Positions 715 through 27,734 of a stretch of DNA of 64,000 nucleotides are shown here, piece after piece (positions within the stretch are counted from its first letter, which is position 1; each line of letters starts with the position of its first letter). This DNA comes from Daphnia pulex (taxonomy: Eukaryota; Arthropoda; Branchiopoda; Diplostraca; Daphniidae): NCBI RefSeq assembly GCF_021134715.1, contig NC_060024.1, positions 5,766,001-5,830,000 of the forward strand, written 5' to 3'. Below the pieces are notes generated by a model. It was not told the DNA's origin. It ran no database searches and worked only from the letters and a program-made list of their open reading frames with translations. The translations under genes were made by a program, and so were the position numbers.

Positions 715-860
715 AAATCGCTGCCACCATTATGTAACGACCACTCCATCTCGGAGATCGGGTCGCACAAATATCACACGAGTAAATGAATGAAAATCGG
801 GCCACCCACAATTGCTGAATGTATTCGGGATTACTAGGCTAAGAGTGCCTATTAGGCGTT

Positions 861-1967
861 TTAAATGCCGTATTTTGAGACCTGGTGCACGTCGTCTAGG
901 CGTGACATTTCGGTTCTTGCAGAATATATATTTTCGTTGACCTTTCTTGGCGGAATAGGGATATGCTTAATTGGTGGTCCTTCTTTTAGGTCTGGCATAT
1001 CATCGTAGTTTCCATTTTGGGAGGTCTCGTCCGATATTATGCTCATGATTGCGATCGCTTTTTTGACCCTGTGAGAATTATTAAAATAAAATCTAGTGTC
1101 GAGTGTTTTATAGACCTTTTTCCTATTCTCACGATTGTAGAGGCGTAAATATTGGTAGACGACATTCCTGCCATCACTTTCAGCGGCCATGATTGGAGTT
1201 TCGGTTTTCCGATTTCCAAGTTCCAGGTGGGCTCCGTGAAAAATCAATACCCTTAACGTGGGTATATCGTTCACGAAATGCGCGGGCGTGTTTCCGTTAT
1301 TGTCCTATAGGTTTACTTGTGCTCCGTTGTACAGTAGAATGTCGGCAATTTCATGTCGTTTTTTCCACTGCCAGATGGATATAAGATAGCGATTTATGCA
1401 CTTTTGTGTTGACAATGTGCTGAAATCTATCTAGCTCTACTAGTTCCCGTATGGTGTCGATGTCGTTTCTCCTTATAGCCACTGAAATGGGGCAGCTGTA
1501 TTTTCGGTTGATCAGAAATGACTCGACTTTTGGGTTTTGGCTGAGGATGTAATTGATACAATTCCTAGCCTGATGGCTTATTGCCAAAGTCAAAGGAAAT
1601 TCCTGGTTTACCAGATCGTGTTCTAACAGGTTTATCTTGTAAATATGGACGAACCGTATACTATTTACGTCATCCCGTGAGATGAGTATTTCCGTGATGG
1701 TTCTAGCCAATCGATCTCCGCCGTAGATTGTGGCGCCCTTGTAGATCAAGTCTTCGAAAATATTAATCCGCTGTAATCGTACCGCGGTCACTAGCGCTGT
1801 TTCATTCTTCGAGTTACTTTTTTCGACGGCTGCATCGTGTTCTAGGAGGATCTTGAAACATTTATACGAATTATGTTTGATAGCTACCAGAAGAGGTGTT
1901 TTTTGTCGATAGGTGTTCTCAATACCCTCTGGGTGTCGCGTTAGCCAATACTTCAACTCGGTGTGAC
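861..1967 (-). pseudogene. Ankyrin-repeat protein of element A, split by element C
   Basis: Two reading frames (1992-1351 and 1274-861) encode ankyrin-like helices (KTPLLVAIKHNSY, NETALVTAV, SCPISVAIRRND, ending with PPIKHIPIPPRK). They are closely similar to the intact-looking copy at 3716-5022. They are out of frame with each other, indicating an indel near 1300-1350. The N-terminal part lies at 15493-15650 beyond element C, where the ATG present in C's copy is changed. The insertion point is duplicated as TGAC (1964-1967 and 15489-15492), which shows directly that C jumped into this gene. Confidence 0.8.
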
Positions 1968-2248
1968 TGTGATGATGTGTCACAGGAGTCAAACCCGAGA
2001 GGTGCGGTTAAAGGTGTATTGAGAACCAACCAAGACAACTGTAACACGATTACAAGCACAAAAAGTGACCGTACACAACGAGAGCTCAAATGGATCGAAT
2101 GTCCGGTTTATATACGGGATGACGGGCGATGGCTTGTCTGATGGTAGCCATGCCTGTTAAAGTAATTAAGAAGATGCGTATGGTAAACGCATCAACAAGT
2201 GTGAGAACTTGTCAATGGCTTTGCCATATGCTGTGAATTAACATTACA
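1968..2248 (-). repeat. 3' LTR of element C
   Basis: 281 bp starting TGTGATGATG and ending ACATTACA, almost identical to 15207-15488. On the minus strand it contains TATATAAACC (complement near 2108-2117), a likely core promoter. The left flank TGAC repeats at the other end of the element. Confidence 0.93.
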
Positions 2249-2266
2249 CTCCTCCCCCGCTTGGAG
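2249..2266 (-). other. Polypurine tract of element C
   Basis: Directly inside the 3' LTR the minus strand reads AGCGGGGGAGGAG, the expected plus-strand DNA primer of a retroelement. Its position on the left side fixes the element's orientation. Confidence 0.8.
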
Positions 2267-2492
2267 ATGTTCCAAACTGGGATGGGGCGTGATCTTTAAA
2301 CATTGGCAAAGCACAGCATCACTACATGTAAGATTAAAAGCACAACATTGCTACATATAAGGTCACTAAAACAGGCAAGAATGGTAAAAATCACTAAACA
2401 GGCAAGAGTGGCAAAAATCTGCATAAAGGCAAATGGTCAATGCTACTGGTGATTATTGTTATGTTTTTCTCCTTTTTTTTTTAAGTTTGTAA

Positions 2493-3101
2493 TCAACGAT
2501 CGTCTCCATATCGACGGTTGAGGCTGCGGACAGCGGAAAAATACCGCTGTTTCAGTTCCTCCTGGTCGATTATGAATTGTTTGACTAAATTCAGTTGGTC
2601 CAGCGCATGGGCCGGATTGTTCTCGGGCGTCGGACGAGTGTTAGTCTGGGGAGCTGCTGGGCCGGCAGGGGCGGCAGGCTGTTGCTCCGGCGTCTGGACG
2701 GTGGTGGAAACGGGTCGTGGAGCCCGCGGTCTTACGGAGGGGACCACTGCTATGACCTGTCGAGTCCTATTTTTCGAAATCGGAACCGGGGAAGGTTTAC
2801 CGTCGTCGTCTGATGAATAGGGGAGAGGCGAATTAAATTTAGAAAAACGTGCTGTAGACGGCCGCTTAACGCCCCGTGTTTTCTGGTCGTCAGGAGAAGT
2901 GTACGAAGTCGATGTCCCAGGTTCCGGCTTTGGATCGTTCGATGGAGACGGTGAAGTTTGTAAGTCATCAGACGGATAACTCCGGTATTCGGTCCTAGGA
3001 AGAGGCCATTCAATTACTCGGCCAACTACTGGTGGCGTAGTGAGTTCCACTTCGTCGTGGATGAAGTCAGGTCCAAGAAGAAGTCGACCACGTCCGGCCA
3101 T
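2493..3101 (-). CDS. GRGR-type small accessory protein of element C (202 aa)
   Basis: No known family was recognised. The protein starts MAGRGRLLLGPDF, has a conserved patch around PPVVGRVIEWPLPR and YPSDD, a Ser/Pro-rich and Pro/Ala-rich middle, and ends in a charged helix finishing SLNRRYGDD. Homologous copies lie at 27107-27734 and 28240-28639. The C-terminal helix with an R-R-aromatic end resembles those of the small proteins at 3316-3771 and 16404-17003, suggesting a divergent family. It is the last gene before the 3' LTR. A conserved upstream block with a TATA box suggests a separate transcript. The frame is uninterrupted; nothing shows a biochemical activity. Confidence 0.65.
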   Translation of the reverse strand: MAGRGRLLLGPDFIHDEVELTTPPVVGRVIEWPLPRTEYRSYPSDDLQTSPSPSNDPKPEPGTSTSYTSPDDQKTRGVKRPSTARFSKFNSPLPYSSDDDGKPSPVPISKNRTRQVIAVVPSVRPRAPRPVSTTVQTPEQQPAAPAGPAAPQTNTRPTPENNPAHALDQLNLVKQFIIDQEELKQRYFSAVRSLNRRYGDDR

Positions 3102-3158
3102 GATGAACAGGATAAAATATGTGGTAGCGAAGTGAAGAAAGAAAAGATTTTACAGCGA

Positions 3159-3167
3159 TATTTATAG
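3159..3167 (-). promoter_or_regulatory. Conserved TATA box upstream of the GRGR small-protein gene
   Basis: The minus strand reads CTATAAATA about 60 bases before the ATG at 3101. About 150 bp around it are nearly identical upstream of the homologous gene at 27107 (TATAAATA at 27041-27048, same spacing), and a weaker TAAAAATA is at 28181. A palindromic TGACGTCA (CRE-like) lies upstream at 3258-3265 in this copy. Conservation of a non-coding block between distant copies supports an internal promoter. Confidence 0.55.
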
Positions 3168-3315
3168 TAGATAGTCGAAGAAGATCGCAAGAGAGAAGTT
3201 GGGGCGGTAACCAACTTAAAGAAGGTGCAGACAAGATGAATCTATATTTTTTTAAAATGACGTCAAAGTCATTAGTCACTGTCAAAAACAGTAGCTAAGA
3301 CGAAGAGTAAAGTAG

Positions 3316-3771
3316 CTAAGATGAATAAATTCTTTTTCGCGCTTGCTTCAGTTGCTGGGCCTGGGAGTAAAAACGTCGATATAGTTCACGGCTGTCGTGG
3401 TTGTATTGGTTAATGAGGTCCTTCCTGTTTTGCTGATACTCCTCCTCGCTTCGGAGAAGAATTGGGGGAGCGTACATCTGCTCAGCTTCCCCGCTGCATT
3501 CGTTGTTGGGGAGTCCTGGTGGAAGGGGGGAAACTGCTTTTTCGTCCGAGGCGAAGTTTAGTGGTAGATCAGGGTTCGGCTCCGTCGATCCGCTATCGAT
3601 TGAACTTACGTCATCGTAGTAAAGATCGTCGCTGTGTAGTGGATCTTCATCTTCCGGATCCGCTTCGTGAAGTGTTATTAGTGAATCTGCTTCAAGTTCG
3701 ATTTGTTCTTTGTTGTTAATAAATCTCCTTTCTGTTTGAAACACTACTGTTTCGCTGCTGCTGATAATCAC
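3316..3771 (-). CDS. Acidic coiled-coil small accessory protein of element C (151 aa)
   Basis: Unrecognised protein with an acidic first half (DPEDEDPLHSDD) and a Gln/Arg-rich helical C terminus (ELYRRFYSQAQQLKQ). The R-R-F-Y motif matches the tail of the small proteins in elements A and B. It begins 56 bases inside the 3' end of the ankyrin gene in another frame, so it may be reached by re-initiation, leaky scanning or splicing; the true start is uncertain. It occupies the same place after the ankyrin gene as the B protein at 16404-17003. Confidence 0.5.
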   Translation of the reverse strand: MIISSSETVVFQTERRFINNKEQIELEADSLITLHEADPEDEDPLHSDDLYYDDVSSIDSGSTEPNPDLPLNFASDEKAVSPLPPGLPNNECSGEAEQMYAPPILLRSEEEYQQNRKDLINQYNHDSRELYRRFYSQAQQLKQARKRIYSS

Positions 3772-5022
3772 TTTCGCTGGTATTTTCCTTACTCGTGGCG
3801 GAATCGTACTCCGGAATCGTACTGGCGGAATCGTACTCCTTTCGTGGCGGAATAGGGATGTGCTTAATTGGCGGTATTTCTTCCAAGTCTGGCATATCCT
3901 CGTAATTTCCTTTTTGGGAGGTCTCGTCCGACATTATGTTCATGGCTGCTATCGCTTTCTCGATTCTGTCAGAATTATTGTAATAAAATCTAGTGTCGAG
4001 TGTTTTATAGACCTTTTTCCTATTTTCATGATTGTAGAGGCGTAAATATTGATAGACGGCATTCCTGCCATCTTTTTCTGCGGCCATGATTGGAGTTTCG
4101 TTGTTACGATTTCCAAGTTCCAGGCGGGCTCCGTGAGAAATCAATACCCTTAACGTAGGTATATCGTTCACGAAGTGTGCGGGCGTGTTTCCATTATTGT
4201 CCTGTAGATTTACGTGTGCTCCGTGGTATAGTAGAATGTCGGCAATTTCATGGCGGTTTTTTTCCACTGCTAGATGGATATAAAAAAGAGATTTTTGCAC
4301 TTTTGTGTTGACAATGTGCTGGAATCTGTCTAGCTCTACTAGAGCCCTTATGGTTTCGATGTCGTTTCTTCTTATAGCCACTGAAATGGGGCAGCTGAAT
4401 TTTCTGTTGATTAGAAATGACTCGACTTTTGGGTTTTGGCTGAGGATGTAATCGATACAATTCCTAGCCTGATGGCTTATTGCCAAAGTCAAAGGAAATT
4501 CCTGATTAACCAGATCGTGCTCTAGAAGGTTTTTCTTGTAAATATGGACGAACCGTATACTATTTACGTCATCCCGTGAGATGAGTATTTCCGTGATTGT
4601 TCTAGCCAATCGATCTCCGCTGTAGATTGTGGCGCCCTTGTAGATCAAGTTTTCGATCATGTTAATTCGGTGTAATCGTACCGCGGTCACTAGCGCCGTT
4701 TCGTTTTTCGAGTTACTTTTTTCGACGTCTGCATCGTTCTCTAGGAGAATCTTGAAAAATTATACGAATTATGTTTGATAGCTACCAGAAGAGGCGTTTT
4801 TTGTCGATAGCTGTTCTCAATGTCCTCTGGGTGTCGCGTTAGCCAATATTTCAACTCGGTGTGACTGTCCATCAAAACCAATTCGTGAATCTTCGGGGTG
4901 GTTTTTTCAATTCCATGTTTCCGGTTGGGAGGAAAAGCATTTCTCCTACTCATGTGGGTAGTGCTAAAGGTCCAAATCCGTTGACGTTCCGATGGGGTCG
5001 TTGCAAAATCCTCTTGGTTCAT
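3716..5022 (-). pseudogene. Ankyrin-repeat accessory protein of element C, one frameshift
   Basis: The start (5022) is followed by an N-terminal segment and ankyrin-type helices: KTPLLVAIKHNSY, ETALVTAV, SCPISVAIRRND, IHLAVEKNRHEIADILLYHGA, NETPIMAAEKDG. The stretch near HVNLQDNNGNTPAHF is a canonical ankyrin repeat. The frame shifts near 4745-4755 (5022-4741 against 4690-3716); the homologous A copy keeps about one more base there. Length is about 435 residues. Ankyrin repeats bind other proteins. The gene lies directly after Env and before the small proteins; a role in manipulating host pathways is conjecture. Elements A and B carry ankyrin genes in the same slot. Confidence 0.75.
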
Positions 5023-5164
5023 TTTTTCTTTTTCTTTTCTATGATGATATAGTGTTTTAAATATTAGAAGGTGGGTTTTTTTTTAACATATTTTTGTATA
5101 TAGTTATTCAAAGCATTTCTACTCTACTCCATGCGGTGATAAGTATGTTGTCAATTGTCAGCAG

Positions 5165-8100
5165 TTACAGATGAATTTGATTAAGGAAACTATTTGCTCG
5201 GCTTATTGATTCGACAGGCGCACTTGGTGGCATAACATATGGATACATATTTCCTGGCATTATAACTGGATGGTTTGTGGCATATGCCATGTGATGACTC
5301 TGCTCTATTGGTATTTCTACTGCTGCACGGCGATTTCGGCGTTGTTGAAACGAATCTATCATGGCTGGTATAGGGTTGACTCGTGCAAAAATATACGCGA
5401 CTAGGATAAACATTATAAATCCTATCGTAGTAAAAACGATAATTTTTAGATAATCTGTCCAAGAATACATGTCTCCAATTTTCGTATCCTGTTTCTCTGA
5501 CATTATCATTCCAGCTAACGAATTGTCGTGCGTTTCCTCTATCCTACCTATTAATTCGTTTAAAACGTTGAGTCGTTCTAAGTCTGTTACGGAATGAGCT
5601 GTGTGTCCTTTTAAAGCGTAGTTAAAATCGTTAAGGGAGAGCTCTTCAAACTGCGATACAAGATTTAAATTTGGTGTGTGTATATTCGGCGTTTGCTCTG
5701 TCCAATCTGCGTGGGTTGTATTGTGTTCCCAGTGAAATGTTTTTCCGTTTAGATTGACAAGGTTTGTTTTCCAAAAACAATTGGAAAATGGGTGGATTGA
5801 CCATCCATCTGTTCCAATTGTATAGTTGTTATTTTTGTAAACCGTGTATGGCTGGAATCCACATTTCGTTTCTATTGCTCCGACTGTAACTTGTTTCTTC
5901 TCGCATTCTTGTAGAAGTAGAGATTGTCCGAGTCCTTGAAGTCGTGAACAAGTTGGTAGTTCCAATGCTGCTGCGGCTAGAATTCCATTTGTTTGAGACA
6001 GTGTCATGGCTTGCAATCTTCTCAACACAGACACCTTGCAGTATATTTGTCGTATCTCTCTTGCCAGCTCATTTTCGTGTTGAATCTCGATGTTCTGCTT
6101 ATATTGCTCGTGGAAGGATTGGATGATGGGCTTGATGATCTCGCTGATTTCTTCTTTGTTTGCTGTCGTTGGTTTATTTTGTGTGGTGTTTTTGCTTTTG
6201 TCGGTTGAGTCGTTCTGGTAAGGTAATGTGGCTTTTGTTGGTATAGGTATTGTTTTGGAATCGTTTTGGTGGGGTATGATGGTTCTGGTGGGATGAGGTA
6301 AGGGTAAGGGTTGTTTCGTAACTTTTTGGTTGGGACCTGTTGTTTTTGTTTGGGGTGGGATGTTGCTTTGCGTAGAATTACGTGGGCGTGGTACAGGTGG
6401 TTTTGTTGGTTCGGTTAAAGGTATGGGTTTTGAAGTTGAAGTTGTTGTCGTTGTCGTTGTTGTTGTGGTTGTTGTTGTGGTTGTTGTTGTTGATGTCACT
6501 TTTGGTGCAGGTTTTGTCGGTGCAGGTACTGGAGGATCTGTAGGTCTTGTTGGGTTCATTGTTGGCGGGTCGCTTGAATTATTATTGATTCCTGCATCTG
6601 GCCTCGCTATTTCGCCTGCGAAGACTGTTGTTAGATTTTTCTGTTGATTATTCCCTAGATTTTGTTGTTTTATTTGTGACGCTGCTGCAACTTTAGTTTC
6701 ATTTATGATCGGTGTTTCTACGGCTTTTATCTCCAATATTTCAGGGTACTCTTCTTTGTTGGTCTCTGTTTTTGTATCTGGAACTGGCGTTGTTTCTTCT
6801 TTGTTGGTCTCCGTTGTTGTATCTGGAACTGGCGTTGTTTCTGGTAACGTTTCATCTTCAATGAGGCTCATGTTATTTTGATTCCGGAAGATTGGCGGCA
6901 TCGTCGGGAATGGCATATCATGAATGGAAAAGTTTTTATGCCACTCGAGAATCCTGGAAGGTATTAAGCTGGGATGCTCTTCGGAATTTATTAGATTAGG
7001 GTTGTATGCTTCAAATTTCCATTTCTGATGTCTGGGTTTCTGGTCATCGTTGCATAATCCTAATCTTAACTTTCCTTGGTGAAATTCAATGCATTTGATT
7101 GAGTTCACATCCATTAATTGTCCAGTTATCTCGTTGGCTCCCCATCTCATACTATCTGGGTTGCATTGCTCGAGAACTGCGTTCTTTTCGTTTATTCTTA
7201 AACAATGATTGGTGTCGAACTTCCTGATGGTATAGTCGATGTCGTATTCAAACAGTTGATCTGGAAACTGCATCGGGTCTCCTGGTGATTGACATGGCTC
7301 CATAGAGATGTTTAATTTTCCGTGTATATTGTTCATACACATCGGCGTTTTTCCATTTTTGTTTTTGTTCATAAGTTGTCCCCAATTAAATATATGGTCT
7401 ATATTTAATAGGTTTTCTGCAGGGCTGCTTCTGAATTCTTCGTGGACGAATTCCCATTCTTCTATTGTGATGTTTGGATATGCTTGACGTAGGTTGTAAT
7501 CCGTATTCCGTTGATCAAATCTCCACATCTGCTTGATTGAATGGGGCTCCATTTCACAAGGTTCAAGTGACACCTGGTCCTTGAATGCTGTAAGACATCC
7601 TTTCGATTGCGTTTCCATGATGTACATTCGGTAGTCATCATAGATCCAAGTCGAGTGGGGTATCGAACAATCTTTGAAGAGCAGGTGGTTTGGGTTGTTT
7701 ACTGTCAGACAGTAACTGGTTCCATTTGTTGTAAAACGAATTGAATAGTCCGTGGAAAATTCGAAAAGCTGCTGCGTTTTTGGCCAAATTCCTAGCCCGC
7801 TCCATGTAGTTTTGTTGATTGGAACTCGAGGCATCAGGAACAGATGATTTTCGATGTCGGAAGTTGTTACCACGTAACTTTTGTCTTCATATTTCTCGTC
7901 GAACTCGGTGGGTGGAAATGATGCAAGGGGGTTGAGGTGTCCCCATGCAAACACGTGGCTATTTTCGTTGTTAAATTGTTGAAGCTGTCTTGTGTGTCGA
8001 GTTTTTGACGTTGGGTTTGTTAAGAAGAATTTTTCGATCTCGTCTTCAAAAACTATGTGGGTATCCGGTATGCCAATTATTTTGTAAGAATTAGACATAC

Positions 8101-8906
8101 CGGCGCAAAGGTTGACTTTTTCGGGACCAAATAAAATTTCAACTTGTTTTTCGGTATCTAATATTCTACCTGTTTTTATCTGTTTTAATCTTGGATTTCT
8201 GTCTATTTTAATGAGAGATATTCTACCTGTTCCCTTAAATTGTTTCTTTTCTTGACATTTTACCTCCTCTGTAGGAACATTTGGTATGCGCCACACAATA
8301 GTATTGTGGTTAACGATAAGGTGTTCGTTTTTCAACGATACGTTATGCGATCCAAATGGTGATAGAAGTGGTCCATCGGTGGACTCTTGTCTAATCTCAA
8401 TGTCTTGGGCTAAACAATTCACTACTGAATATTCTTTTATTGACATCCATTTTCCTTCACCTACTGGTTTTTGTCTATAACTATATGTTTTGCCGTTAAC
8501 TATATTCTTATTTCCTGCGCAGTTTAATAGCGATTTCATTTCCCAACATTCTTGGGGACTGACCTCTTTCGTCGTGTGAAAATGCTCTGTGTCATATGAT
8601 CCTACCCAAAATGATCTTGTCCCCTGTGATCTTTTTCGTTTCTATCCATTGCGAGCATACGAGTCCTTCTACTCGCAGGTCTGTTTGTATTTTAGTAGCC
8701 ACATAATAGGTTACTAATTTGCTCATAACTTTCTGTTCATCCTCTTTATCAGTGGGATTTTTGAAACAATAATCTGGGTCTGTAAGGTCAAGCAGACCTC
8801 TCGTGACTGGTTTCGAGCAGTCGCAAATTTGTATATTAAGCGTCAAAATAGGCGTAAAGACAATCGACAAGTAGCATGCTGTGGTAAGAACAGCGTTGTT
8901 TCCCAT
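5165..8906 (-). pseudogene. Env glycoprotein of element C, one frameshift
   Basis: The first part (8906-8592) starts with a hydrophobic signal segment followed by LNIQICDCSKP. The rest continues in another frame (up to 8592, and from 8539) to 5165, so one indel lies near 8590. The long part (1124 residues) has lectin-like Cys/QxW segments at about 259-343 (KQMWRF) and 430-512 (HQKWKF), a Thr/Pro-rich mucin-like stalk at about 565-790 with a run of Thr from a GTT-type repeat, a conserved ectodomain with DGWSIHPFSNCFW near 911, a transmembrane helix at about 1031-1052, and a cytoplasmic tail containing PSAP. Many N-glycosylation sites are present. The fold class is uncertain; similarity to chuvirus-like (Monjiviricetes) glycoproteins captured by retroelements is a hypothesis. 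Confidence 0.8.
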
Positions 8907-8947
8907 CTAATTTGGAAAAACAAAATACGATTACTGTTTGTTAAGCT

Positions 8948-10126
8948 TTAATTTCTATTTCTAAGTGGATATCTATGTGACACACGTATTTGTGTCGGTG
9001 GAATTACGGGGTTGTTATTAGGTAATTCCTGATCTGTAACTTTTGATTGTTTTGGGGGTCTACCACGTCTACCTCCACGTTTCGGTTGTGGGGGAATTAC
9101 AACCCCTGTTATCTTCGGAGGTCTACCTCTTCTTTTTGTCGCTGTTACGACTTCTTTTACTTTTGGAGGCCTACCTCTTTTCTTTCCTACTTTAGTTTGT
9201 ATCTTCTTAATGGTTTTACGTCTTTTCTTAATAATTATTGGGTTAGGGATAGTTATATTATTGGGAGTGCTGGTTACTAATTTTAACCTATTTACATGTA
9301 CTATATATTTCCCTTCGTCCTCAGTGTTATTTATTTCGTCTGTTATTTTGATAATTTCATAGTTAAGGTCCGATATTTTTCTATTTATTTTATACGGTCC
9401 TAACCATCTATTATTAAATTTTCCTGGGGTAGAATGGGCTTTTAAGAGTACGTGATCATTTACGTTATACTTAACTAATTTACTACCTTTGTCATATAGC
9501 CGTTTTTGCTTTGATTGAACTTTCTCTAATCGTTCTTTCGAACGTTTTAGAGCTCTTTTCCATTGTTTATCGTATTCATCTGCGTCATCTTCAAAAACGT
9601 CTATGTCATCATTGATAGAAATATCGCTTGGCACTACTGCTTCGCGTTTAAAAAATAGATAGAAAGGGCAACAGTCTGTACTAGTTTGCTTTGCAGTGTT
9701 ATATGCGAAAGTTACAAAGTCGAGATATTTATCCCATGACTCTGGTTCATCGTTCACATAACATGCGAGCATATCGCACAGAGTCCTGTTGAATCTTTCC
9801 ACTAGTCCATCCGTCTGCGGGTGGTAACTTGTAGTTTTAATTTGCTTAATTTTAAAAAGAATGCATATTTTTGAAATGAGTTTTGAAAGGAAATTAGTTC
9901 CTTTATCTGTCAATACTCTTGCTGGAGGACCGAATTTTGTATAGACTTTTTTCACTAAATGTTCTGCTATCGTATGCGCTTTCTGGTCTTTCATTGGTAT
10001 GGTCATTACATATCTACTTGCGTAATCAGACAAAACTAAAATATATTTGTTTCCTTCACTACTTTCCGTAACCGGCCCTACTATGTCCATTGCGACTTGT
10101 TCCCAAATGTTTGCTACTAAAGGCAA
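8948..10126 (-). CDS. Integrase core and AT-hook C terminus of element C
   Basis: Catalytic DDE residues are visible: D in AMDIVGP, D in VLTDKGTNF and E in GLVERFNRTL. They are followed by a chromodomain-like or GPF-type C-terminal region (NNRWLGPYKI) and then three AT-hook-like motifs, GKKRGRPPK, KRRGRPPK and GRRGRPPK, before the end. AT-hooks bind the minor groove of AT-rich DNA, so this tail may guide integration. The reading frame is the same as that of the RT part upstream (10208-11746), separated by one TAA at 10208-10210 within the zinc-binding region (downstream CIACAKRK completes HHCC). Confidence 0.88.
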   Translation of the reverse strand: MPLVANIWEQVAMDIVGPVTESSEGNKYILVLSDYASRYVMTIPMKDQKAHTIAEHLVKKVYTKFGPPARVLTDKGTNFLSKLISKICILFKIKQIKTTSYHPQTDGLVERFNRTLCDMLACYVNDEPESWDKYLDFVTFAYNTAKQTSTDCCPFYLFFKREAVVPSDISINDDIDVFEDDADEYDKQWKRALKRSKERLEKVQSKQKRLYDKGSKLVKYNVNDHVLLKAHSTPGKFNNRWLGPYKINRKISDLNYEIIKITDEINNTEDEGKYIVHVNRLKLVTSTPNNITIPNPIIIKKRRKTIKKIQTKVGKKRGRPPKVKEVVTATKRRGRPPKITGVVIPPQPKRGGRRGRPPKQSKVTDQELPNNNPVIPPTQIRVSHRYPLRNRN

Positions 10127-10207
10127 TGGCTTAAGTGGGGCTTTAGTCGACCCATAGGCCTTACGTTTTGCACATGCAATACAATTGTTTACATATTCAG
10201 TAACGTC

Positions 10208-11746
10208 TTAGGCTAGTCCGGGCCAAACGAATTGGCGTTTTACTCTCGCTAGCGTCTTTGCTATCCCTAAATGCCCTGCTAAAATATGATCATGATTCAA
10301 TTCTAAAATTTCATTAATTTTCTCTTTAGGCACAACTATTTTCCCTTCATTTGTTATTAAAATACCTTCATTATTGAAACGGAATTCATTACATTCTTTC
10401 TTATTGTTTTCTTCTAGTCTCTGTATTATTTCTTTACAATAATTATCATTTCTCTGTGCTAATATTATATCATTTTGAACCTTTTCTTCTTTTACTAATA
10501 TTATCGATCCTATTGATGGTAATGGAGTCCTACTTAATGCATCGGCATTTTGATTTTCCTGGCCAGGACGATGTAGGACTATCATATCGTATGATTGCAT
10601 TTCATACGACCAACGAGCTAATCTGCCATGCGGATCTTTCTTCTTCATTAATGTCTCCAATGGTTTGTGGTCTGTGTATACTTTAAAACTTCTTCCGTAT
10701 AAGTATGGTCTAAACTGCTCTAATGCATAAACAATCGCTAAACATTCTTTTTCTGATACATTCCAATTTCGTTCTCTTTCGTTTAAATGTCTTGACGCAT
10801 AAGCTATAACTACTTCCTGTTCTCCGTGGGCCTGTGTTGTATCTGATTCTGAGGGGGGTATGTTCTGTATCTGTGCTAACACAGCTCCAATCCCGTATCC
10901 TGAGGCATCTGTGTATACTAAAAATTCCCTGGTGAAATCTGGATACCTTAAGAGTGGATTGTTGGTTAGCGAATTCTTGATACGTCGAAAGGCGTCCCTT
11001 TCGTTTTCTTCCCAAATCCAAGTCGATGATTTCTTTGTCAGTTCTGTTAAATAATGCGCTATCTCTGCGTAACTTCGAACGAATTTTCGATAATAATTAA
11101 CTAATCCTAAAAACGAGAGTAGTTGCTTTACGTTTTGTGGTTCGGGGTAGTTTAGAATTGAAGTAATCTTCTTATTGTCTGGATGAAAACCATTTACTGT
11201 AATCACGTGACCTAAATATTTAATTTTTGTTTTGAAAAAATCGCACTTACTTAATTTTAATTTTAATCCTTCATTTGCCAGAAGCTTAAAAATAATTTTC
11301 AAATGTTTTATGTGGTCATCAAGCGTTTTACTGAAAACGATGATGTCGTCAAGGTAAACAAGTGTAAATTCGTACAGCACGTCCTTTAATACATTGTTCA
11401 TCTCCCTTTGGAATGTGCCTGGTGCATTGCACAAACCAAATGGCATACAGTTAAATTCATACAAGCCATACTCACAAATAAAAGCTGTTTTATATTTATG
11501 TTTTTCTTCGATCTCGATTTGCCAGTATCCACTGAGCAAATCCAGAGTCGAGAAATACCTGGCACCGTGTAGACTATCAATAATTAGCTGAATGTTTGGT
11601 ATGGGGTACCTGTCTTTTATGGTTACACTGTTTAACTCACGATAATCCACGCAAAATCTCATCTGTCCTTCTTCTTTTTTAGCTACTAAAAGAATAGGTG
11701 ATGCAAAAGGGCTTGTACTGGGCCTAATTATATTATGTTTTAACAT
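10208..11746 (-). pseudogene. Reverse transcriptase-RNase H and start of integrase, element C
   Basis: RT motifs are intact: FCVDYRELN, LDLLSGYWQI, MPFGLCNAPGTFQ and the catalytic YLDDIIVFS, then FLGLVNYYRKFV. RNase H follows with VYTDASGYGIGAVL, EKECLAIVYAL and YTDHKPLE, then the integrase zinc finger start (HDHILAGHLG). A TAA stop ends the frame inside the HHCC finger, 27 codons before the next downstream start. The upstream joint to the protease is a frameshift beside a T8 run near 11757-11764. The stop and shift make this copy non-autonomous as read. Confidence 0.92.
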
Positions 11747-12521
11747 GTCTTCTATTTGTTTTTTTTACAACAAGTCGTAGCCTTTCAGGCGTTCTTCTCA
11801 TAGGCATAACGTTCGGAAGCTTGGTTGTACGTATAAGGTGCTTGACTGATTTTGCTTTTCCTAGCTCATTTAAATTCTCAGTAAAAAGCGAAAAATTTGA
11901 AATTAAAAGGTTCTTTAAATTTTCCCTGTGTGTTGTTGGTATGCCTTCTAAATTAAATTGGGGTGGATCAACTATGCTAATTGAGTTAATCTGTAATGGC
12001 GGTATTATAAGTTTCTTTAACTCATTGTTTTGTTTATAGCTAATCGATCGTTCGCTAGGGTTTATTATTATTTCGTTAGTTGCCAAGAAATCGTAACCTA
12101 AAATACATCCTTCTTCTAACTCTGACATTACATAAAATGGATGTTTAAACGAGTGTCTACGAGCTAGTCTAATATTTAGCTCGTAGCATCCTCGTGGTTT
12201 GACTAACTCTCCTGATACTGTTCTAAAAAGCTGTGTGCTATCGTTGGCGGTATTTATTTCTTTAACTTCTCCATAGGGTACATTTATAAGTAGTCGATGT
12301 GCAAGGAAACTAGCTGAAGCACCTGTATCTACTAAAGCTTGTGTCTTTAGACCAGAAAAACTCACTGGTATACGCATTAACTGCGTAACGCTACATATTA
12401 CGGGTATATTTATATTTACAACACTGTTACTCGATAAACCTACTGCTGTTCTGTTGACGGGGGCGGGGGCACGCTGCGACATTCTCGCGCGTAGTGGCCT
12501 CGCTTTCCACAAGCATAACAC
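11733..12521 (-). CDS. Aspartic protease region of element C Pol
   Basis: The active-site motif ALVDTGASASF is followed by a flap-like region and CILGYDFLATNEI, typical of retropepsins (the ILG triad). The frame runs on toward RT (RRTPERLRLV) and ends in a frameshift at the T-run near 11760. Upstream it overlaps the zinc-knuckle frame in a different phase, as expected for Gag-Pol frameshifting, though mutation is equally possible. Confidence 0.85.
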   Translation of the reverse strand: MLCLWKARPLRARMSQRAPAPVNRTAVGLSSNSVVNINIPVICSVTQLMRIPVSFSGLKTQALVDTGASASFLAHRLLINVPYGEVKEINTANDSTQLFRTVSGELVKPRGCYELNIRLARRHSFKHPFYVMSELEEGCILGYDFLATNEIIINPSERSISYKQNNELKKLIIPPLQINSISIVDPPQFNLEGIPTTHRENLKNLLISNFSLFTENLNELGKAKSVKHLIRTTKLPNVMPMRRTPERLRLVVKKTNRRHVKT

Positions 12522-14622
12522 TCTATATGTCTCTTATTTCTAAATCCTTGGGCTGGGTTATACCAAGCGTTATGCTGTGGCCTAGCTCCAGGGGGACCTG
12601 AGGTAACGAAGTTATTCTGGCGCGGTACCTGATGGGCACGAAACGTTTGGTTTCGAAAATGTTGGGGATATTCACTGAAATTCTGAAATCTACGACGAGG
12701 ATTAAGCATAGGATTAAATTTTGGGGACGCTGAAATTGTCCTTGTGACCTGTTTGAATAATTTTGTGGTGGTGGAGTTGGCTCTCTTCTCGGACGGTTAT
12801 CTAGTGTATCATTATATCTGTTACCACTAGAACTACGTGATCTATGGTGTTGATTATTCGTACCTCTAGATCGAGGAATATTTCTATCCACGCTGTGTTG
12901 GCGGCTTGGGGGGTGCTGAAAACGGATCCGATTTTCCGAATTGGACCGTCTACGATCGCCGGAAGGTGATCTGTGTCTGTTAAAGGCGTCGGCAACTGCT
13001 ATTGAGGGAAAATCAATCTCGTTGTTTTCCTGTGGAGCATTTTTTCCGATAGTTAGACCGGCTAACTGTTTCTCTAAATGAACAATCTTTGTTTTCTGCC
13101 GCAAGATCTCTATATCTTGCTCGTTATCGTGTGCAGAGATACCTGCTATAGTGGCCTTTAAACTCTTATCTTCATTCTGTTCCATTCTATTAACTAAAGT
13201 TTCTGCGGCGTAGGCGATTTCGCATACGTCTTCGTAAGCACTATCAACATCCATGCGGCTCCAAACTACTTTCAATATTTTAGGCAAGAGACCCTTTAAA
13301 AGAATTTTTTGTTTAGCTTCGCCTCTCATTTGACTCAGAGATATTGCTAATGCCCTAGCTTCGTTCGTCGCTTTGTCACCTAATGTAATTTCTTTTCCGT
13401 GAATGATGTCATATAACTGATTAATTCTACTAACGAAAGTTTGTGTGCTTTGATCAGGGGTCTGCCGAAGCTCGTTTAATTGTTTTCTTAAATTTTCTAA
13501 CTCTGTTTCTGTAAGAAATCTATTTATTAAAGCTTTTTCCCATGCATCGTAATCTTCCTCATCTTGTGCTCTTTCCATATAATCACTATGCCAATCCGCA
13601 GCATCTCCTCTTAGTCTATCTGAAAAATATTTAATTTTATCTTTCTTCTCCCACCCTGCGCTTTGTGCGACTCTTTCCGCATCTTTTAACCAATTATTAA
13701 CTAGCTGCTCTCCTCTTTTGCCTTTAAAAATCGGGATAGATTTACGTTCGTCCTGTGAATATAATTCACGTAAATGGCTCTTAGTTATTGGTGCATCTTC
13801 GTTTCCATTGCCTAATGTCATGGTTATAATATTAGTTGTTTGGGTGGGCTTTGAATGGGTTTGCGTATCTGCTACTAGAGTTGAGTTCAAATGTTTTTGA
13901 ATGTATAAATCTTTAGCTTTAAGTTCTTGTTCGAGGTCAGAGATTTTATTGGACAAGTCTCGTTTGGTTGTTTTCAAAAGTTTTATGCTTGCTTCTTTGG
14001 AGTTGGCTTCAATTTGCAATGTGTCTAGCTTCTGAGATAGTTCCTGGTTTTTATTTGTAAGTGCTGTTACGTCGTCTTCTGTTAATTTACTTGCGTTCTT
14101 CAAAGCTTCGTGTGCGTTGTCTAATAGATTGTAGCTATGGTTTAGTTGTTTTATTTTATCTTCAGTATCTTCCTTAAGTTGTGATAGAGAATCCCTTAAA
14201 TCATTTATGCAGTCGTTCTGTCCTATGATTTCGCTCTTAGCTTTTTCTAGATCGGTTTTAGCTGTCTCATATTCTGTCAAAAATGTTTTACTCTCATCGC
14301 TTGCCTGACTTTCTTTGGGTCTATTATTAAAATCTGCTATTAAAGTTGCTTGTTTAAAATTTGTTCGGGTTAATGTCTCTACTTCTGCTGTTAAACGAGT
14401 GTTTTCTAGATAAGAATCGGCTACTTTCTTTGAAAATTCCCTTCTTACTTTATCTACCTCTTTTTCAGTCTTTTTCGTTTCGTTCGCTACGTCTTGTTCA
14501 AGATTCTTTGCATACTCATCTAATGCTAATTGTTTGAAAAGAAGTTCCCTCTTAAATATTTTAAATGCTTTATTCCGAAAATCTACTTCTCGACTATGAG
14601 CTTCTCTAACATTTTGTAACAA
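12440..14622 (-). pseudogene. Gag of element C: coiled coil, capsid-like domain, zinc knuckle
   Basis: The frame 14622-12523 holds about 230 residues of heptad-rich coiled coil, then a retrotransposon Gag domain (IPIFKGKRGEQLVNNWLKDAE, AADWHSDYMERA, LTETELENLRKQL), then an Arg/Ser-rich linker. The zinc knuckle CYACGKRGHYAREC is in another frame (12709-12440), so an indel lies near 12700. The extreme N terminus is a separate frame at 14679-15026. Confidence 0.85.
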
Positions 14623-14678
14623 AGGGTTAAATTTATTGGGGTCTGCTTTTAATTCTACGAAATATGTCCCTAATTTTT

Positions 14679-15026
14679 CTAAACTTTTTCTTTAGCCTCA
14701 CCGGTAAGATAAACTGAACTTCCAAACTCCTTCTTATGCAATTCAAATGTATACTGTTTCAAAAAATGATAAACTTGACATGTGACTTCCTTTCTTTTTG
14801 CAATATAACTACTTCGTGTCAAGCGTTTATCTGAGGTTTCATCTATATTACTTTTACAAAGACTTATTAAATTTGACCAATGGGTAACAAAATTGTTTCT
14901 AACTTTTAGTACACTATCAGCTAAGGAATTTACGTACGCGTCTTCTTCAAGGTCTATCTCATCAATTAAAGACTCATTAATAGCAGTAAACGAAGTGTCG
15001 CTAATTGTTGTTTGAGGATTCGTCAT
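14679..15026 (-). pseudogene. N-terminal piece of element C Gag
   Basis: This 115-residue frame starts with an ATG shortly after the primer-binding site and ends at VYLTGEAKEKV. The continuation (EKLGTYFVELKADPN) is found in the frame of 14622-12523, so a one-base shift near 14680 separates them. It is acidic then basic and mostly helical; it is assigned to Gag from position only. Confidence 0.6.
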
Positions 15027-15190
15027 TCACTTACAGTTTTGAGAAAATTGATGTTTCCTTCCTCGATGTAGATGATCTCGTTGTGGGTTGTCTGGTCGTC
15101 TGGTCGTTCTGTCGTCTGGTCCTAGGTGGTGTGGCAGCTGGGGGCGATGTTCCTTCTCGTTGACTCACGGCAGGTCTTGAAGTCCAAACT

Positions 15191-15203
15191 GGCACGTTCA
15201 CCA
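15191..15203 (-). other. Primer-binding-like site of element C
   Basis: Three bases inside the 5' LTR the minus strand reads TGGTGAACGTGCC. A start with TGG is expected for pairing with the CCA end of a tRNA. The specific tRNA was not identified. Confidence 0.5.
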
Positions 15204-15206
15204 ATT

Positions 15207-15488
15207 TGTGATGATGTGTCACAGGAGTCAAACACGAGAGGTGCGGTTAAAGGTGTATTGAGAACCAACCAAGACAACTGTAACACGATTACAAGCACAA
15301 GCGAGTGACCGTACACAACGAGAGCTCAAATGGATCGAATGTCCGTTTTATATACGGGATGACGGGCGATGGCTTGTCTGATGGTAGCCATGCCTGTTAA
15401 AGTAATTAAGAAGATGCGTATGGTAAACGCATCAACAAGTGTGAGAACTTGTCAATGGCTTTGCCATATGCTGTGAATTAACATTACA
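15207..15488 (-). repeat. 5' LTR of element C
   Basis: 282 bp, same ends as 1968-2248 and differing at about 4-5 positions. The right flank TGAC (15489-15492) is the second half of the target duplication. Confidence 0.93.
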
Positions 15489-15727
15489 TGACTGTCAATC
15501 AAAACTAATTCGTGAATCTTCGGGGTGGTTTTTTTTCAATTCCATGTTCCCGGTTGGGAGGAAAAGCATTTCTCCTACTCATGTGGGTAGTTCTAATGGT
15601 TCAAATTTGTTGACGTTCAGATGGGGTCGTTGCAAAATCCTCTTGGTAAATTTTTTTTTCTTTTCTATGATGATATGGTGTTTTGGATATTAGAAGGTAG
15701 TTTTTTTATATATATTTTTGTATATAG

Positions 15728-16134
15728 TGTAAGGCGCTTTTTAGGGGCTTGAAAAGGCGCGCTTACTTTGAAGACTAACTCGCGGGTTATTAGGCCGAAC
15801 TAGTTTATTGGTTACACTGCACAAAATACAAGAGGAGTATAAACGAGATCGAGCTTCAACTGGAGTTACAAGCAGTCGAAGAGTGAGATGACTAGTCTGA
15901 CTCTTGGAGGGTGCGACGGGAGTTTATATATGTATTCCCGCGCGGCCATTTTGGAATGGTGTAATTCCAAAATGGCGGGACAAAACGATCATGATTCATG
16001 AGGGGTTATTCAAGCGGGTGGGACAAACGATTATGGCTATTAATAGGAGAAGAGCCTGAAGGGGGCGTGGTTACAGACGATGCATACAGTAAACGATATA
16101 CACTCTTTTGGTCAGCACTCGGCTGCGCACTACA
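15728..16134 (-). repeat. 3' LTR of element B (TGTAAGG family)
   Basis: 407 bp from TGTAAGGCGC to GCGCACTACA, homologous to 25480-25897. The minus strand has TATATAAACT (15930-15921) and TCAGAC about 30 bases further (15900-15895), a plausible TATA-initiator pair. The polypurine tract at 16135-16152 lies on its right side, so it is a 3' LTR in minus orientation. Confidence 0.85.
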
Positions 16135-16403
16135 TACCTCCTTTCTTTGAAAAGACACGTCCTCGTGTCTATACAAAATCAATAGAGGTTATTCCAAAGG
16201 CACGGGAATGCAGGTATGGATTAAGCGTATACATTTTTATTTAGAAGAATTGAGATTGGTTTGATAACTAATACCAAATACAAAATACAAAGTACAAAGA
16301 ACAATTTAGCGTCGGCCCGGCAGTATCTAAGGTTTTTTTTTAATTGACTACCGCTTTCTATGGTTTGACTACAAAAGTTGATTATTATAAGTATAATATT
16401 TCA

Positions 16404-17003
16404 TTAAAAACGCCGGAGGATGCGCTGACGGTCTTGCTGGTATACTTCCATTAGCCGCGCTTGCGTCTCTAAGAATTTTTCAGTTAGCTCCATCAATTCG
16501 CGTTGGACCTGCTGATGCTCTTTCAGAAAATCGGCTAGGTGGCGTGTTGTAGGCGGCCCGTACAATGAATCGTACGATGGAGGCAAATGTCGTCCGTAAT
16601 GGTCAGGTGGAGGGGGACTTCCGGGGGCCATTGGAATGATTCTGGGTGGCTGAAAGTAATTTTCTTGCTCTTCCAAGGAAACGGGCAACGGGCTTCTTGG
16701 TGTGTCCGGAATATTAATTTGATGGCGACGAGCATTCCTTTGCTCTTCCATCTCTTCCTCCATTCGTCTGAAACTCATTTCAGTGAGGCGCTGCACGGTC
16801 TCTGAAACAGGCCGTGCTGGCGAGAGCTCACGTTGCCAAGTTAATGATGGGATTGTCACAATTTCACTAACTTTTTCACTTGTCATGACTTCTTCATTTC
16901 TTATTGAATTGTTCACTTCACCACTTGTTGCGTTGCTTAACAATTGAAATCCGCGTCCCCGACCGTACATTTTTGGTTTTTGTAAAGAGGAGGGTTGACG
17001 CAA
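16404..17003 (-). CDS. Small PPxY coiled-coil accessory protein of element B (199 aa)
   Basis: Uninterrupted frame with an ATG. A GRGRGFQLL-type N terminus (MYGRGRG) recalls the MAGRGR start of the small protein at 2493-3101. The middle is helical and charged (RMEEEMEEQRNARR), followed by a Pro-rich part with PPSYDSLYG and a C-terminal helix ending RILRRF. The PPSY matches the PPxY consensus bound by WW domains. It lies between the ankyrin gene and the polypurine tract. Function unknown. Confidence 0.65.
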   Translation of the reverse strand: MRQPSSLQKPKMYGRGRGFQLLSNATSGEVNNSIRNEEVMTSEKVSEIVTIPSLTWQRELSPARPVSETVQRLTEMSFRRMEEEMEEQRNARRHQINIPDTPRSPLPVSLEEQENYFQPPRIIPMAPGSPPPPDHYGRHLPPSYDSLYGPPTTRHLADFLKEHQQVQRELMELTEKFLETQARLMEVYQQDRQRILRRF

Positions 17004-17082
17004 GACTGAACTGTATTACTTTTTTCGTTCACTCACTTTTATTTTCTTTATTCTTACTCTTTTGACCATTTGATATTTGATC

Positions 17083-18573
17083 TTAAAGAAACATTAGGTC
17101 AGTTTCTAGGTCACTTTGTCCTTCATCTTGAAATAATTGCTGAGTCTCCAATTCTGGTACATTCCACGGGATCTCCTGCTGGAAATCATATACCTCTGTA
17201 TATATGGGGCAATTGTATACAGATGGCAGTTTAGCTAGAAGGGTCACGGGGGAGTATTGTTCGTTGTTCAGTACCGTTATTCTTGCGCCTTTGTGGATGA
17301 GAAAACTGGCCAGTTCTTTATTTCCAAAAAGGGAACAGTAGTGCAAGGCCGTGTTTCCACTTTCGTCTGTGGCGTCTAGTAGAATACACGTTCTTATGTT
17401 GATAGGTTCGCAATTTACGATGATTACATCTGTCGAGTTGATGTCATCATTTAATAAAATAGGTTCGACTGGCGTGTTTGTGTCGTCGAACAGTTCCTTT
17501 GCTGCTTCCGTGTAGTTAAAACTTGCCGTTATGACTAACGGCGTTTGTCCTCTCACATCTAGGGCGTTTCTGTCCACGTACTTTTCCTTTAGAATTTTAA
17601 TTGCCGTTAGATTGTTGACAGAGCATGCAATGTGAAGAGGTGTTTCGTCGTACATATTTCTTGCGTTGAAGTCTGTTGTGCGAGATGAAATTATTTCTAA
17701 AAGTGATAAGTTTTCGTGGCGGCATGCCATGTGAATTAGCGTATTTTGTTGTTTGTCTCTTGTTGATGCATCGAAGTGAACACTATGCCACAGCATGTCC
17801 AATGCTCTTTCATTATTGTACTTAATAGCAATTGTCAAGGGTATGTCCCCGTAAACGTCGTTGATGGATCCTTGGGTTTTGTCTAGAAGTTTGTGCAGAA
17901 TGCAAGGGCTAGCATTTATGCACGCGTCATGCAATAGCGTTTTTCCTTCTCTGTCTTGTTCATTGTAGTATTCCGGTTATATCAATAGGACATGTAACAT
18001 TTTTATTTTACTTTGTTTGACTGCTGATATCAGTGCATTATCTCCTTCATTGTTTAATAACTTTGGATTGTAATATCGAATTTTTCTTACTGCTCTTCCA
18101 ATTTCTATGTTGTTTAGTTGCACTGCAATATGCATGGGGGTGTTTCCTTCTTTTGTACGTGCGTTCACGTCTGCACCATTTTTTAATAATTCAAGCACTA
18201 GTTTTAGCGCATTTGCTTCGATTGCATAATGGAGTGCTGAATAGCCTTTTTCGTCTTGTATGTTCATTGAAGCCTTTTGCGTAAGTATTAAACTTGCGAA
18301 GCTATAGGCTCCCAGTTGGCTTGCAATTATCAGAGGTGTCTCGTTTCGATGGTTGAAAATATTGACGTTTTTCTCGGTTTTGACTCGTTCAATGAGGCGG
18401 TTAACAGATTTCCCTCTGGTTCCAAATCAGCTTGCTGTGCTTGCAATTCGACTATATGTCATATTTATTTTATTGATTCTCACCGGAGCTTGTTTGCTAG
18501 ATATTGCTTCCTCTACTACTTTGTCCATTTCTTCTGTTGAATTCTTTACTTTATTTTGGATGAGGACTTCCAT
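17083..18573 (-). pseudogene. Ankyrin-repeat protein of element B, two in-frame stops
   Basis: A single frame from the ATG at 18573 to 17083 (about 496 codons) shows at least six ankyrin repeats: NETPLIIASQLGA, GYSALHYAIEANALK, GNTPMHIAVQLNN, ETPLHIACSVNNL, GQTPLVITASFNY, GNTALHYCSLFGN. It is interrupted only by TGA (18429-18427) and TAA (17979-17977). No indel is needed, so decay was by substitution. Sequence identity to the ankyrin proteins of A and C is low, so the slot is conserved better than the gene. Confidence 0.82.
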
Positions 18574-18804
18574 ATCTTTGCCAAGTGACGTGCATGATGG
18601 GGACTGATAATTTTCCGTTATTGTTCCGTATCCTTATATAGAGAGGTTTGTTGCCTGGTTGTTAGCCCTTTTTTGTTTTTTGTTTTTTTGAGTGGTCTGC
18701 GGGGGGTTAAAGGTTAAGTCTTTGGGTTATGGGGGGAACGGCCGGTGCGCTGGGGGTCGGTAATAAAAATTGGGTTTGCGTGTCCGTTAGGTTATCTTCT
18801 TTTT

Positions 18805-26731: not shown

Positions 26732-27040
26732 TATCGAATTAACTTTTAATTCTACTATATGCGAACATATAATTTTTCTTGGTTTATTTCTGTTTTTCAA
26801 ATGTGTTTTTCGCAAACTTTTCCGTTGATTTTAGTTTGGTTTAAACTACTCAAACTTTCATTTTTTTTTGTCTCCTCCATATTTTTACTCCTCCTCTTTT
26901 TGTCACCTTTCCTTGTAGCCAGTAGTAAAAAACAAAAAATTTGTTTTAATGTAATTAAAAAAAAGAATCACCTTGTCTACACCTTCTTTAAGTTGGCTAC
27001 CGCCCCAAATTCTCTCTTGTGATCTTCTTCGACTATCTAC

Positions 27041-27048
27041 TATAAATA
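27041..27048 (+). promoter_or_regulatory. TATA box upstream of the second GRGR gene copy
   Basis: TATAAATA lies 66 bases before the ATG at 27107, in a block of about 150 bases conserved with the minus-strand copy upstream of 3101. Confidence 0.55.
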
Positions 27049-27106
27049 TCGTTGTAAAATCTTTTCTTTCTTCACTTCGCTACCACCTATTTATACCCTA
27101 TTCATC

Positions 27107-27734
27107 ATGGCCGGACGTGGTCAACTTCTTCTTGGACCTGACTTCGTCCACGACGAAGTGGAACTCACTACGCCACCAGCAGTTGGCGGAGTAATTGAAT
27201 GGCCTCTTCCTAGGACCGAATACCGAAGTTATCCGTCGGATGACTTACAATCTTCACCGTCTCCATCGAACGATACGGAGCCGGAACCTGGGACATCGAC
27301 TTCTTCCACTTCTCCTGACGACCAGACAACACGGGGCGTCAAGCGGCCGTCTACAGCGCGCTTTTCTAAAGTTAAATACAACCGTGTTTGTATTCTCGCC
27401 TCTCCCCTATTCATCGGACGACGACGATGAGCCTTCCCCGGTTCCGATCTCGAAAAATAGGACTCGACCGGTCATGGCTGTGTTCCCCTCCGTGAGACCG
27501 CGGGCTCCACGACCCGTTTCCACCACCGTCCAGACGCCGGAGCAACAGCCTGCCGCCCCTGCCGGTCCAGCAGCTCCCCAGCAAAACACACGTCCGACGC
27601 CCGAAAACAATATGGCCCTTGCACTAGACCATCTCAACTTACTAAAGCAATACATCATCGACCAGGAGGAACTCAAACAGCGATATTTTTCTGATGTTCG
27701 CAGCCTAAACCGTCGTTATGGAGACGACAGATAA
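27107..27734 (+). pseudogene. GRGR-type small accessory protein, second copy, frameshifted
   Basis: Starts MAGRGQLLLGPDF and ends SLNRRYGDD, close to the copy at 2493-3101. The first half is in one frame to about 27375 and the second half in another. Relative to the first copy there are about 19 extra bases near 27371-27395, causing the shift. Downstream is a short 3' region and a simple repeat. Confidence 0.75.

What the first reader, a model, noticed from the sequence alone, without database searches (positions are those of the whole stretch)
1968..15488. A 13.5-kb gypsy element with an Env and a three-gene accessory cassette
Seen: Env is followed by an ankyrin-repeat gene and two small protein genes, all before the polypurine tract and LTR, with both LTRs and target duplication intact. 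Known: insect errantivirus-type gypsy elements usually end with env. Inference: this is a complex, retrovirus-like organisation with host-interaction genes, possibly a lineage restricted to crustaceans.
Basis: partly seen in the sequence, partly recalled or inferred. Interest (0 to 1): 0.9.

Follow-up and report, generated by a model that had tools for sequence, protein, structure and literature searches.

The report
Daphnia retrovirus-like element with accessory genes
A water-flea genome carries families of retrovirus-like jumping elements that have an envelope gene followed by an ankyrin-repeat gene and, in some, small extra genes, a layout otherwise familiar from complex vertebrate retroviruses.

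Summary
Window 1968-15488 is a Ty3/Gypsy provirus on the minus strand: LTRs of 281/282 bp (4 mismatches, 1 gap), TSD TGAC, gag-PR-RT-RH-IN, Env, ankyrin gene, two small genes, PPT, LTR.

Of six copies of this LTR family with both LTRs, 6 carry the ankyrin gene in the slot and 5 carry both small genes. Of 29 Env C-terminal places found by a capped search of the genome, 21 have an ankyrin match on the same strand 0.3-1.6 kb downstream. Ankyrin genes look constrained.

Corrections. This copy is decayed. Kinship to insect errantiviruses is not shown: a low-confidence Env model matches class III fusogens and carries two ricin-B-type lectin stretches. The last small gene is shared with another gypsy clade, where it lies before env. 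Relatives that bear an organism name (8 of 19 for Env, 3 of 12 for the last small protein) are all Daphnia.

What the accessory proteins do is inferred. New variant of a known kind.

The parts
15207..15488 (-). 5' LTR (282 bp)
1968..2248 (-). 3' LTR (281 bp); 277 of 281 aligned positions equal the 5' LTR
15489..15492 (.). target duplication TGAC (right copy)
1964..1967 (.). target duplication TGAC (left copy)
15190..15203 (-). putative primer binding site, begins TGG three bases after the 5' LTR; the tRNA was not identified
   Evidence: sequence; not tested
2249..2258 (-). polypurine tract GGGGGAGGAG
   Evidence: sequence
14679..15026 (-). ORF of 115 aa upstream of gag, possibly gag N-terminus
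12523..14622 (-). gag (Retrotrans_gag, Ty3_capsid)
11733..12521 (-). aspartyl protease
10208..11746 (-). reverse transcriptase, RNase H and integrase zinc domain
8948..10126 (-). integrase core and C-terminus
8592..8906 (-). Env N-terminal piece (signal-peptide-like start by eye, CDC motif); split from the rest in this copy; acceptor-like AG directly before its ATG
5165..8539 (-). Env main piece: Ricin_B_lectin (two stretches); in a modelled relative also a long helix, a C-terminal beta region and a membrane helix
4741..5022 (-). ankyrin gene, N-terminal piece (frame broken in this copy)
3716..4690 (-). ankyrin gene, main piece (Ank_2 E 5.7e-18)
3316..3771 (-). small gene p189 (189 aa open in 4 other copies); weak model: N-terminal strand pair, unstructured middle, long C-terminal helix
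2493..3101 (-). small gene p208 (MAGRGR family; 202 aa here, 208 aa in 3 other copies)
26957..27727 (+). p208 region in a neighbouring element of clade E type, 89-91% identical in DNA to family A's p208 with its upstream stretch
846..1967 (-). left part of the ankyrin fragment into which the element is inserted
15489..15728 (-). right part of the same ankyrin fragment
16404..20529 (-). divergent decayed relative (family D): env pieces, ankyrin gene about 17083-18594, small protein 16404-17003

Best explanation
This is a decayed copy of a retrovirus-like Ty3/Gypsy (Metaviridae) lineage of Daphnia in which Env is followed by an ankyrin-repeat gene kept across families and then by a changeable set of small accessory genes. 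Shown from sequence: the element layout, the cassette in sister copies and the ankyrin gene in sister families, constraint on the ankyrin gene, and sharing of the p208 gene between two clades. Inferred: Env works as a class III fusogen whose two beta-trefoil lectin domains bind glycans on the target cell, so the element can pass between cells (for example soma to germline). The ankyrin protein acts inside the cell as a protein-binding scaffold that diverts host factors, and the small proteins (p189: acidic, mostly unstructured, with a C-terminal helix and, in relatives, a SUMO-interaction-like motif; p208: proline-rich) act as adaptors for counter-defence or for handling the viral RNA. Env may be made from a spliced message; how the later genes are expressed is unknown.
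For: LTR, TSD, PPT and domain order. Ankyrin gene in 6 of 6 and both small genes in 5 of 6 LTR-paired copies. Ankyrin match behind Env at 21 of 29 Env C-terminal places; chance about 0.0004 per place by the script's list of 32 ankyrin places, about 0.001 if the roughly 100 matches are all counted (my arithmetic). NG86 omega of ankyrin 0.15 (L021-L022) and 0.21 (L036-L037); Env family A 0.12-0.20; p189 0.21-0.24 in family A and 0.37-0.66 among close pairs of family B. Env model: 48 of 50 PDB rows shown are herpes gB, VSV G or Mokola G; 41 of 50 viral rows shown bear glycoprotein-type names of negative-strand viruses or gB. Ricin_B_lectin E 2e-14 to 3e-17. RT tree: A+B 100/100, C1+C2 100/99, together 93/96, apart from the E rows. 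One copy has identical LTRs (281 of 281) and TSD CTTC, which suggests a recent insertion.
Against: No expression or protein data. The Env model is weak (mean pLDDT 56; TM-scores 0.08-0.25, rmsd about 20-40 A in the rows shown), so class III rests on local matches, not on a superposition. Eight of 29 Env places have no ankyrin match. Some ankyrin pairs with few changes give omega 0.46-0.70 (L009 pairs, L023-L024). In this window's copy p208 shows more amino-acid than silent change (12-14 against 2-3; omega 1.5-2.6). The ankyrin genes of families A/B, C and D share position, but I did not show likeness beyond what ankyrin repeats give, so a single origin is unproven. Splice signals, scored with a generic matrix of my own: env site in the best 2.7% of AGs, about 5% chance per 40-base window; ankyrin gene weak (best 16.8%); no AG in the 40 bases before p208; p189 was not scored because the script missed its start. 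TATA-like sites are no more frequent than chance (5 seen, 4.4 expected).
Confidence: 0.6

Rival explanations
1. The cassette genes serve the element's own RNA and particle, not host manipulation: one or more act like CERV of Cer1 (nuclear export of unspliced RNA) or as assembly factors, and the ankyrin repeats bind Gag or Env.
For: Cer1, an LTR retrotransposon of C. elegans, has a novel protein from a spliced message that genomic RNA export requires (PMC10309623, abstract seen); MDG1 elements have a sORF1 protein in a subnuclear compartment (PMC11952523, section 7 seen). p189 models as mostly unstructured with a C-terminal helix, which would fit such a role as well.
Against: Pfam finds nothing above cut-off in p189, p208, the family D small protein or the 220-aa protein; no direct comparison with CERV or sORF1 was made.
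Confidence: 0.3
2. Captured host genes carried as passengers, without function for the element.
For: Ankyrin repeats are common in the host genome (many weak matches).
Against: Retained in 6 of 6 copies and behind env in diverged families, with omega 0.15-0.21 in the two best pairs. In this genome the strongest matches to the ankyrin protein lie in family A or B elements, in the window's fragment or in a C12 cluster with p189-like pieces.
Confidence: 0.07
3. One-off nested insertion or assembly artefact.
For: The neighbourhood is nested and repeat-rich.
Against: Env followed by the ankyrin gene is found at five other LTR-paired loci on four contigs, four of them with both small genes.
Confidence: 0.02

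Closest known systems
Insect errantiviruses (gypsy, ZAM; genus Errantivirus)
   Same: Ty3/Gypsy gag-pol with an env gene; presumed cell-to-cell spread
   Different: Env here models, weakly, as class III with lectin domains; gypsy Env has been proposed to come from baculoviruses (PMC12440569, passage seen; PMC13172572, passages seen, reports that proposal and challenges it); extra genes follow env here
Anakin (BEL/Pao element with a chuvirus glycoprotein, mosquitoes)
   Same: LTR element that carries a glycoprotein of negative-strand RNA virus type; PMC13172572 calls it a type III fusion glycoprotein (passage seen)
   Different: BEL/Pao pol, not Gypsy; the words ankyrin and accessory do not occur in its main text (PMC7642597, word search and passages)
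Cer1 with CERV (C. elegans) and MDG1-group sORF1/sORF2 (Drosophila)
   Same: LTR elements with extra genes that serve the life cycle
   Different: Other genes; MDG1 sORFs lie upstream of gag (PMC11952523 section 7); no ankyrin gene known to me there (recalled)
Complex retroviruses of vertebrates
   Same: Accessory genes near env and the 3' LTR (recalled)
   Different: RT is Ty3-like: best solved match Ty3, E 3.3e-92, against 1.6e-29 or weaker for the entries that I take to be retroviral (that attribution is partly recalled)
D. pulex gypsy families (LTR survey of 2010, PMC2996953)
   Same: Same host group; one gypsy subgroup there is distant from known major lineages
   Different: Longest gypsy element listed is 12,862 bp; the main text does not hold 'ankyrin' or 'accessory' (passages and word counts seen)

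Membership tests
Metaviridae (Ty3/Gypsy) | PR-RT-RH-IN order | tested here: met
Metaviridae (Ty3/Gypsy) | RT closest to Ty3 among solved RTs | tested here: met
   7q5b_A 3.3e-92, 4ol8_A 3e-85
Metaviridae (Ty3/Gypsy) | paired LTRs with short target duplication | tested here: met
   second copy TSD CTTC; the other four copies were not checked for TSD
Errantivirus (insect gypsy group) | F-like (baculovirus-type) Env | tested here: inconclusive
   no F-protein Pfam match in the Env proteins scanned; class III matches, but the model is weak
Errantivirus (insect gypsy group) | RT inside the errantivirus clade | not tested
   no reference errantivirus RT was obtained; the tree holds only this genome's elements
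Class III fusogen | gB/VSV G-like fold | tested here: inconclusive
   E down to 2e-12 and 3e-11, but TM-scores 0.08-0.25
Class III fusogen | fusion loops and fusion activity | not tested
   no assay; loops not identified
Complex retrovirus (Retroviridae) | retroviral RT lineage | tested here: not met
Complex retrovirus (Retroviridae) | accessory genes made from spliced messages | not testable with these tools
   no RNA data; one moderate acceptor-like site (env)

The most novel reading that the evidence does not exclude
Daphnia hosts a radiation of complex, retrovirus-like Metaviridae that arose independently of vertebrate complex retroviruses: class III, lectin-bearing envelopes joined to an old ankyrin gene, with small accessory genes that are swapped between families as modules, so accessory-gene turnover under host conflict can be watched inside one genome.
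Probability: 0.5. Interest if true: 0.8.

Novelty: new variant of a known kind. Interest (0 to 1): 0.64.

Why it matters
Accessory genes near env are a hallmark of complex vertebrate retroviruses (recalled). A parallel set in an arthropod Gypsy lineage, with several families and a shared gene in one genome, makes the question how retroelements gain and keep such genes testable by comparison. A fusogen with built-in lectin domains would also be an unusual entry protein.

Tried and rejected
Nested-insertion reading: rejected, because the other LTR-paired copies hold the same genes. Kinship of p189 and p208: only a short C-terminal stretch aligns (hhalign probability 10.6; with the family D small protein 0.8 and 5.1), so it is not claimed. 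Internal promoter of p208: a TATA-like site lies before p208 in family A and in L054 but not in the 90 bases before L056's gene, and such sites are no more frequent in the element than chance; not claimed. Scans of viral contigs with the ankyrin and Env alignments found no relative. Troyka elements: irrelevant (no envelope; PMC12440569, abstract and passages). p189 model: mean pLDDT 52, useful only for the C-terminal helix. Genome search with the family C ankyrin protein did not complete, so the 8 of 29 misses are an upper bound. The 29 Env places are all rows that reach query residue 1169 or beyond; the 32 ankyrin places were picked by hand (19 rows, 11, 2 read in L070 and L071), and weak generic ankyrin rows were left out, which lowers the stated chance. 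The two places behind L070 and L071 were fetched on purpose. The eLife study of envelope-carrying metazoan retrotransposons (10.7554/eLife.108449) is not held; only its title was seen, in a reference list, so part of this may be described there.
Full report
What is there. The window lies at C8:5766001-5830000 of a 133-Mb genome in 13 contigs; near relatives that bear an organism name are Daphnia. The element occupies 1968-15488 on the minus strand. Its LTRs differ at 4 positions and one gap (Jukes-Cantor 0.0144), with TGAC on both sides. Pfam gives gag, protease, RT, RNase H and integrase in gypsy order. Behind integrase come Env, the ankyrin gene, p189 and p208, then the purine tract and LTR. 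In this copy Env and the ankyrin gene are interrupted, and pol probably too (RT frame 518 aa against 1191 aa in four other copies); p208 is open.

Is it an element gene set? A search with the LTR and 152 adjoining bases gave 19 matches. Six loci have both LTRs (window, C8:766k, C5:2361k, C2:9264k, C9:9506k, C8:7039k). I read 9.9 kb of the cassette side of each of the other five. Ankyrin gene: 6 of 6 loci, open over 479 aa in 3. p189: 5 of 6, open over 189 aa in 4. p208: 5 of 6, open (202-208 aa) in 4. Env is a single open frame in 3 of 6. The locus C8:7039k keeps the ankyrin gene but gave no match to p189 or p208 and has inserts in Env; C12:3122k matched only over an LTR-sized stretch, so I take it as a solo LTR. 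One LTR pair is identical (281 of 281; TSD CTTC), which suggests a recent insertion.

Sister families. The Env search scored 37 of 737 candidates, so counts are lower bounds. Of the 29 places that match the Env C-terminus, 21 have an ankyrin match on the same strand within 3 kb downstream (319-1586 bases between the matched parts): 6 of family A, 4 of B, 5 of C, 3 of D and 3 others (C10:10866k, C8:5852k, C8:5202k). Copies of one family are not independent. Misses: C12:2578k, C4:9044k, C5:3270k, C5:3048k, C8:5322k, C5:5907k, C8:6251k, C8:6258k. Family B (RT 76-80% identical) has env, ankyrin and a p189-like gene; the two slots read beyond p189 (C10:6769k, C7:4838k) gave no p208. Family C (RT 56-60%) has env and an ankyrin protein of 527-577 aa with another N-terminus. 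Family D (RT 55%; also window 16404-20529) has env and ankyrin; its small protein was found whole at the window and C3:4038k and in pieces elsewhere, but not at C10:5408k. In D. magna one gene model holds an Env C-terminus followed by ankyrin repeats (P0030).

Selection (NG86; pairs are not independent). Ankyrin: 0.15 for L021-L022 (dS 0.58), 0.21 for L036-L037; within family A 0.06-0.19 among L010-L012 and 0.46-0.57 for L009, whose frame ends early; 0.70 for L023-L024 (10 changes). Env: 0.12-0.20 in family A, 0-0.15 among close pairs of family B. p189: 0.21-0.24 in family A (one pair identical), 0.37-0.66 among close pairs of family B. p208: 0-0.73 among three family A copies, but 1.47-2.59 when the window's copy is compared (12-14 amino-acid against 2-3 silent changes), and 0.16-0.77 among close pairs of clade E. 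So Env is clearly and ankyrin fairly clearly constrained; p208 is not clearly so.

A gene shared between clades. Relatives of p208 lie before a different Env in other elements (clade E; in L069 also behind an integrase match), behind a 218-220-aa protein with a C-terminal hydrophobic stretch, by eye. In the RT tree (18 rows of this genome; 4 of a first list of 20 further RTs could be fetched) A+B and C1+C2 form a clade (93/96), while the five E rows form another (93/95). RT identity of A to the E places is 48-49%. Yet the window holds, at 26957-27727, a p208 region that is 89-91% identical in DNA to family A's p208 with its upstream stretch, next to sequence 84% identical to the E element L053. 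That neighbour's own RT is not in the tree; its clade rests on the flanking match. The simplest reading is exchange of the gene as a module; the direction is not shown.

Env. Pfam finds Ricin_B_lectin in this Env and in two relatives scanned, and no other family above cut-off in them; the two partial Env pieces scanned (L054, L044) gave none. The model of a relative (1123 aa, 17 sequences) has mean pLDDT 56: beta-rich N-terminus, two trefoil regions, a 60-residue helix, a second beta region and a membrane helix. Foldseek gives 152 viral and 145 PDB matches at E 0.001 or better. Of the 50 viral rows shown, 41 are named as glycoprotein, spike, G or outer coat proteins of negative-strand viruses or as gB, and 9 are unnamed or uncharacterised. 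Of the 50 PDB rows, 48 are herpesvirus gB, VSV G or Mokola G and 2 are lectin-bearing proteins. TM-scores are 0.08-0.25, so I take this as a lead to class III, not as proof. A passage in PMC10084718 says that survey found no clear evidence of capture of Jingchuvirales glycoproteins by Gypsy.

Accessory proteins. The ankyrin protein has ankyrin repeats and an acidic C-terminal tail. p189-like proteins of family B hold IIDLT followed by acidic residues (a SUMO-interaction-like motif, recalled), family A's p189 only IDLE; the C12 protein also has PPPY. p208 is proline-rich (31 of 208). Neither small protein has a Pfam match above cut-off. Searches of 5.8 billion proteins gave 12 relatives of p208 (3 with an organism name, D. 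pulex), 19 of Env (8 named, all Daphnia) and 69 of the ankyrin protein, the weaker ones generic ankyrin proteins of many organisms. p189 was not searched there.

Print. Searches listed (7 to 20 rows each, none) no paper whose title or abstract start describes an ankyrin gene behind env in a Gypsy element. The listings were capped, the library is partial, and the closest study (eLife 108449) is not held.

Noticed in passing
window 21248-21795 and 23023-24004: Tandem copies of a 193-base unit next to the decayed family D element.
   Followed up: no
window 1-508 and 16121-16627: A segment of about 508 bases repeated at 97.6% identity on both sides of the nested ankyrin fragment; it holds the end of the family D small protein.
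   Followed up: partly
C12:2812139-2823900 (L021, L022, L074): One family B locus has ankyrin and p189-like sequence twice behind one Env, as if the cassette had been duplicated.
   Followed up: partly
L053-L060 and the places: Clade E elements carry a 218-220 aa protein with a C-terminal hydrophobic stretch before p208.
   Followed up: partly
window 48868-51849: Two long minus-strand ORFs that look like endonuclease and reverse transcriptase of a non-LTR element (by eye).
   Followed up: no
window 57865-62539: Another gypsy-type element on the minus strand (RT at 60227-60991) with no match to this Env.
   Followed up: partly
window 62731-63516: ORF that looks like ribosomal protein S6 (by eye, not searched).
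   Followed up: no
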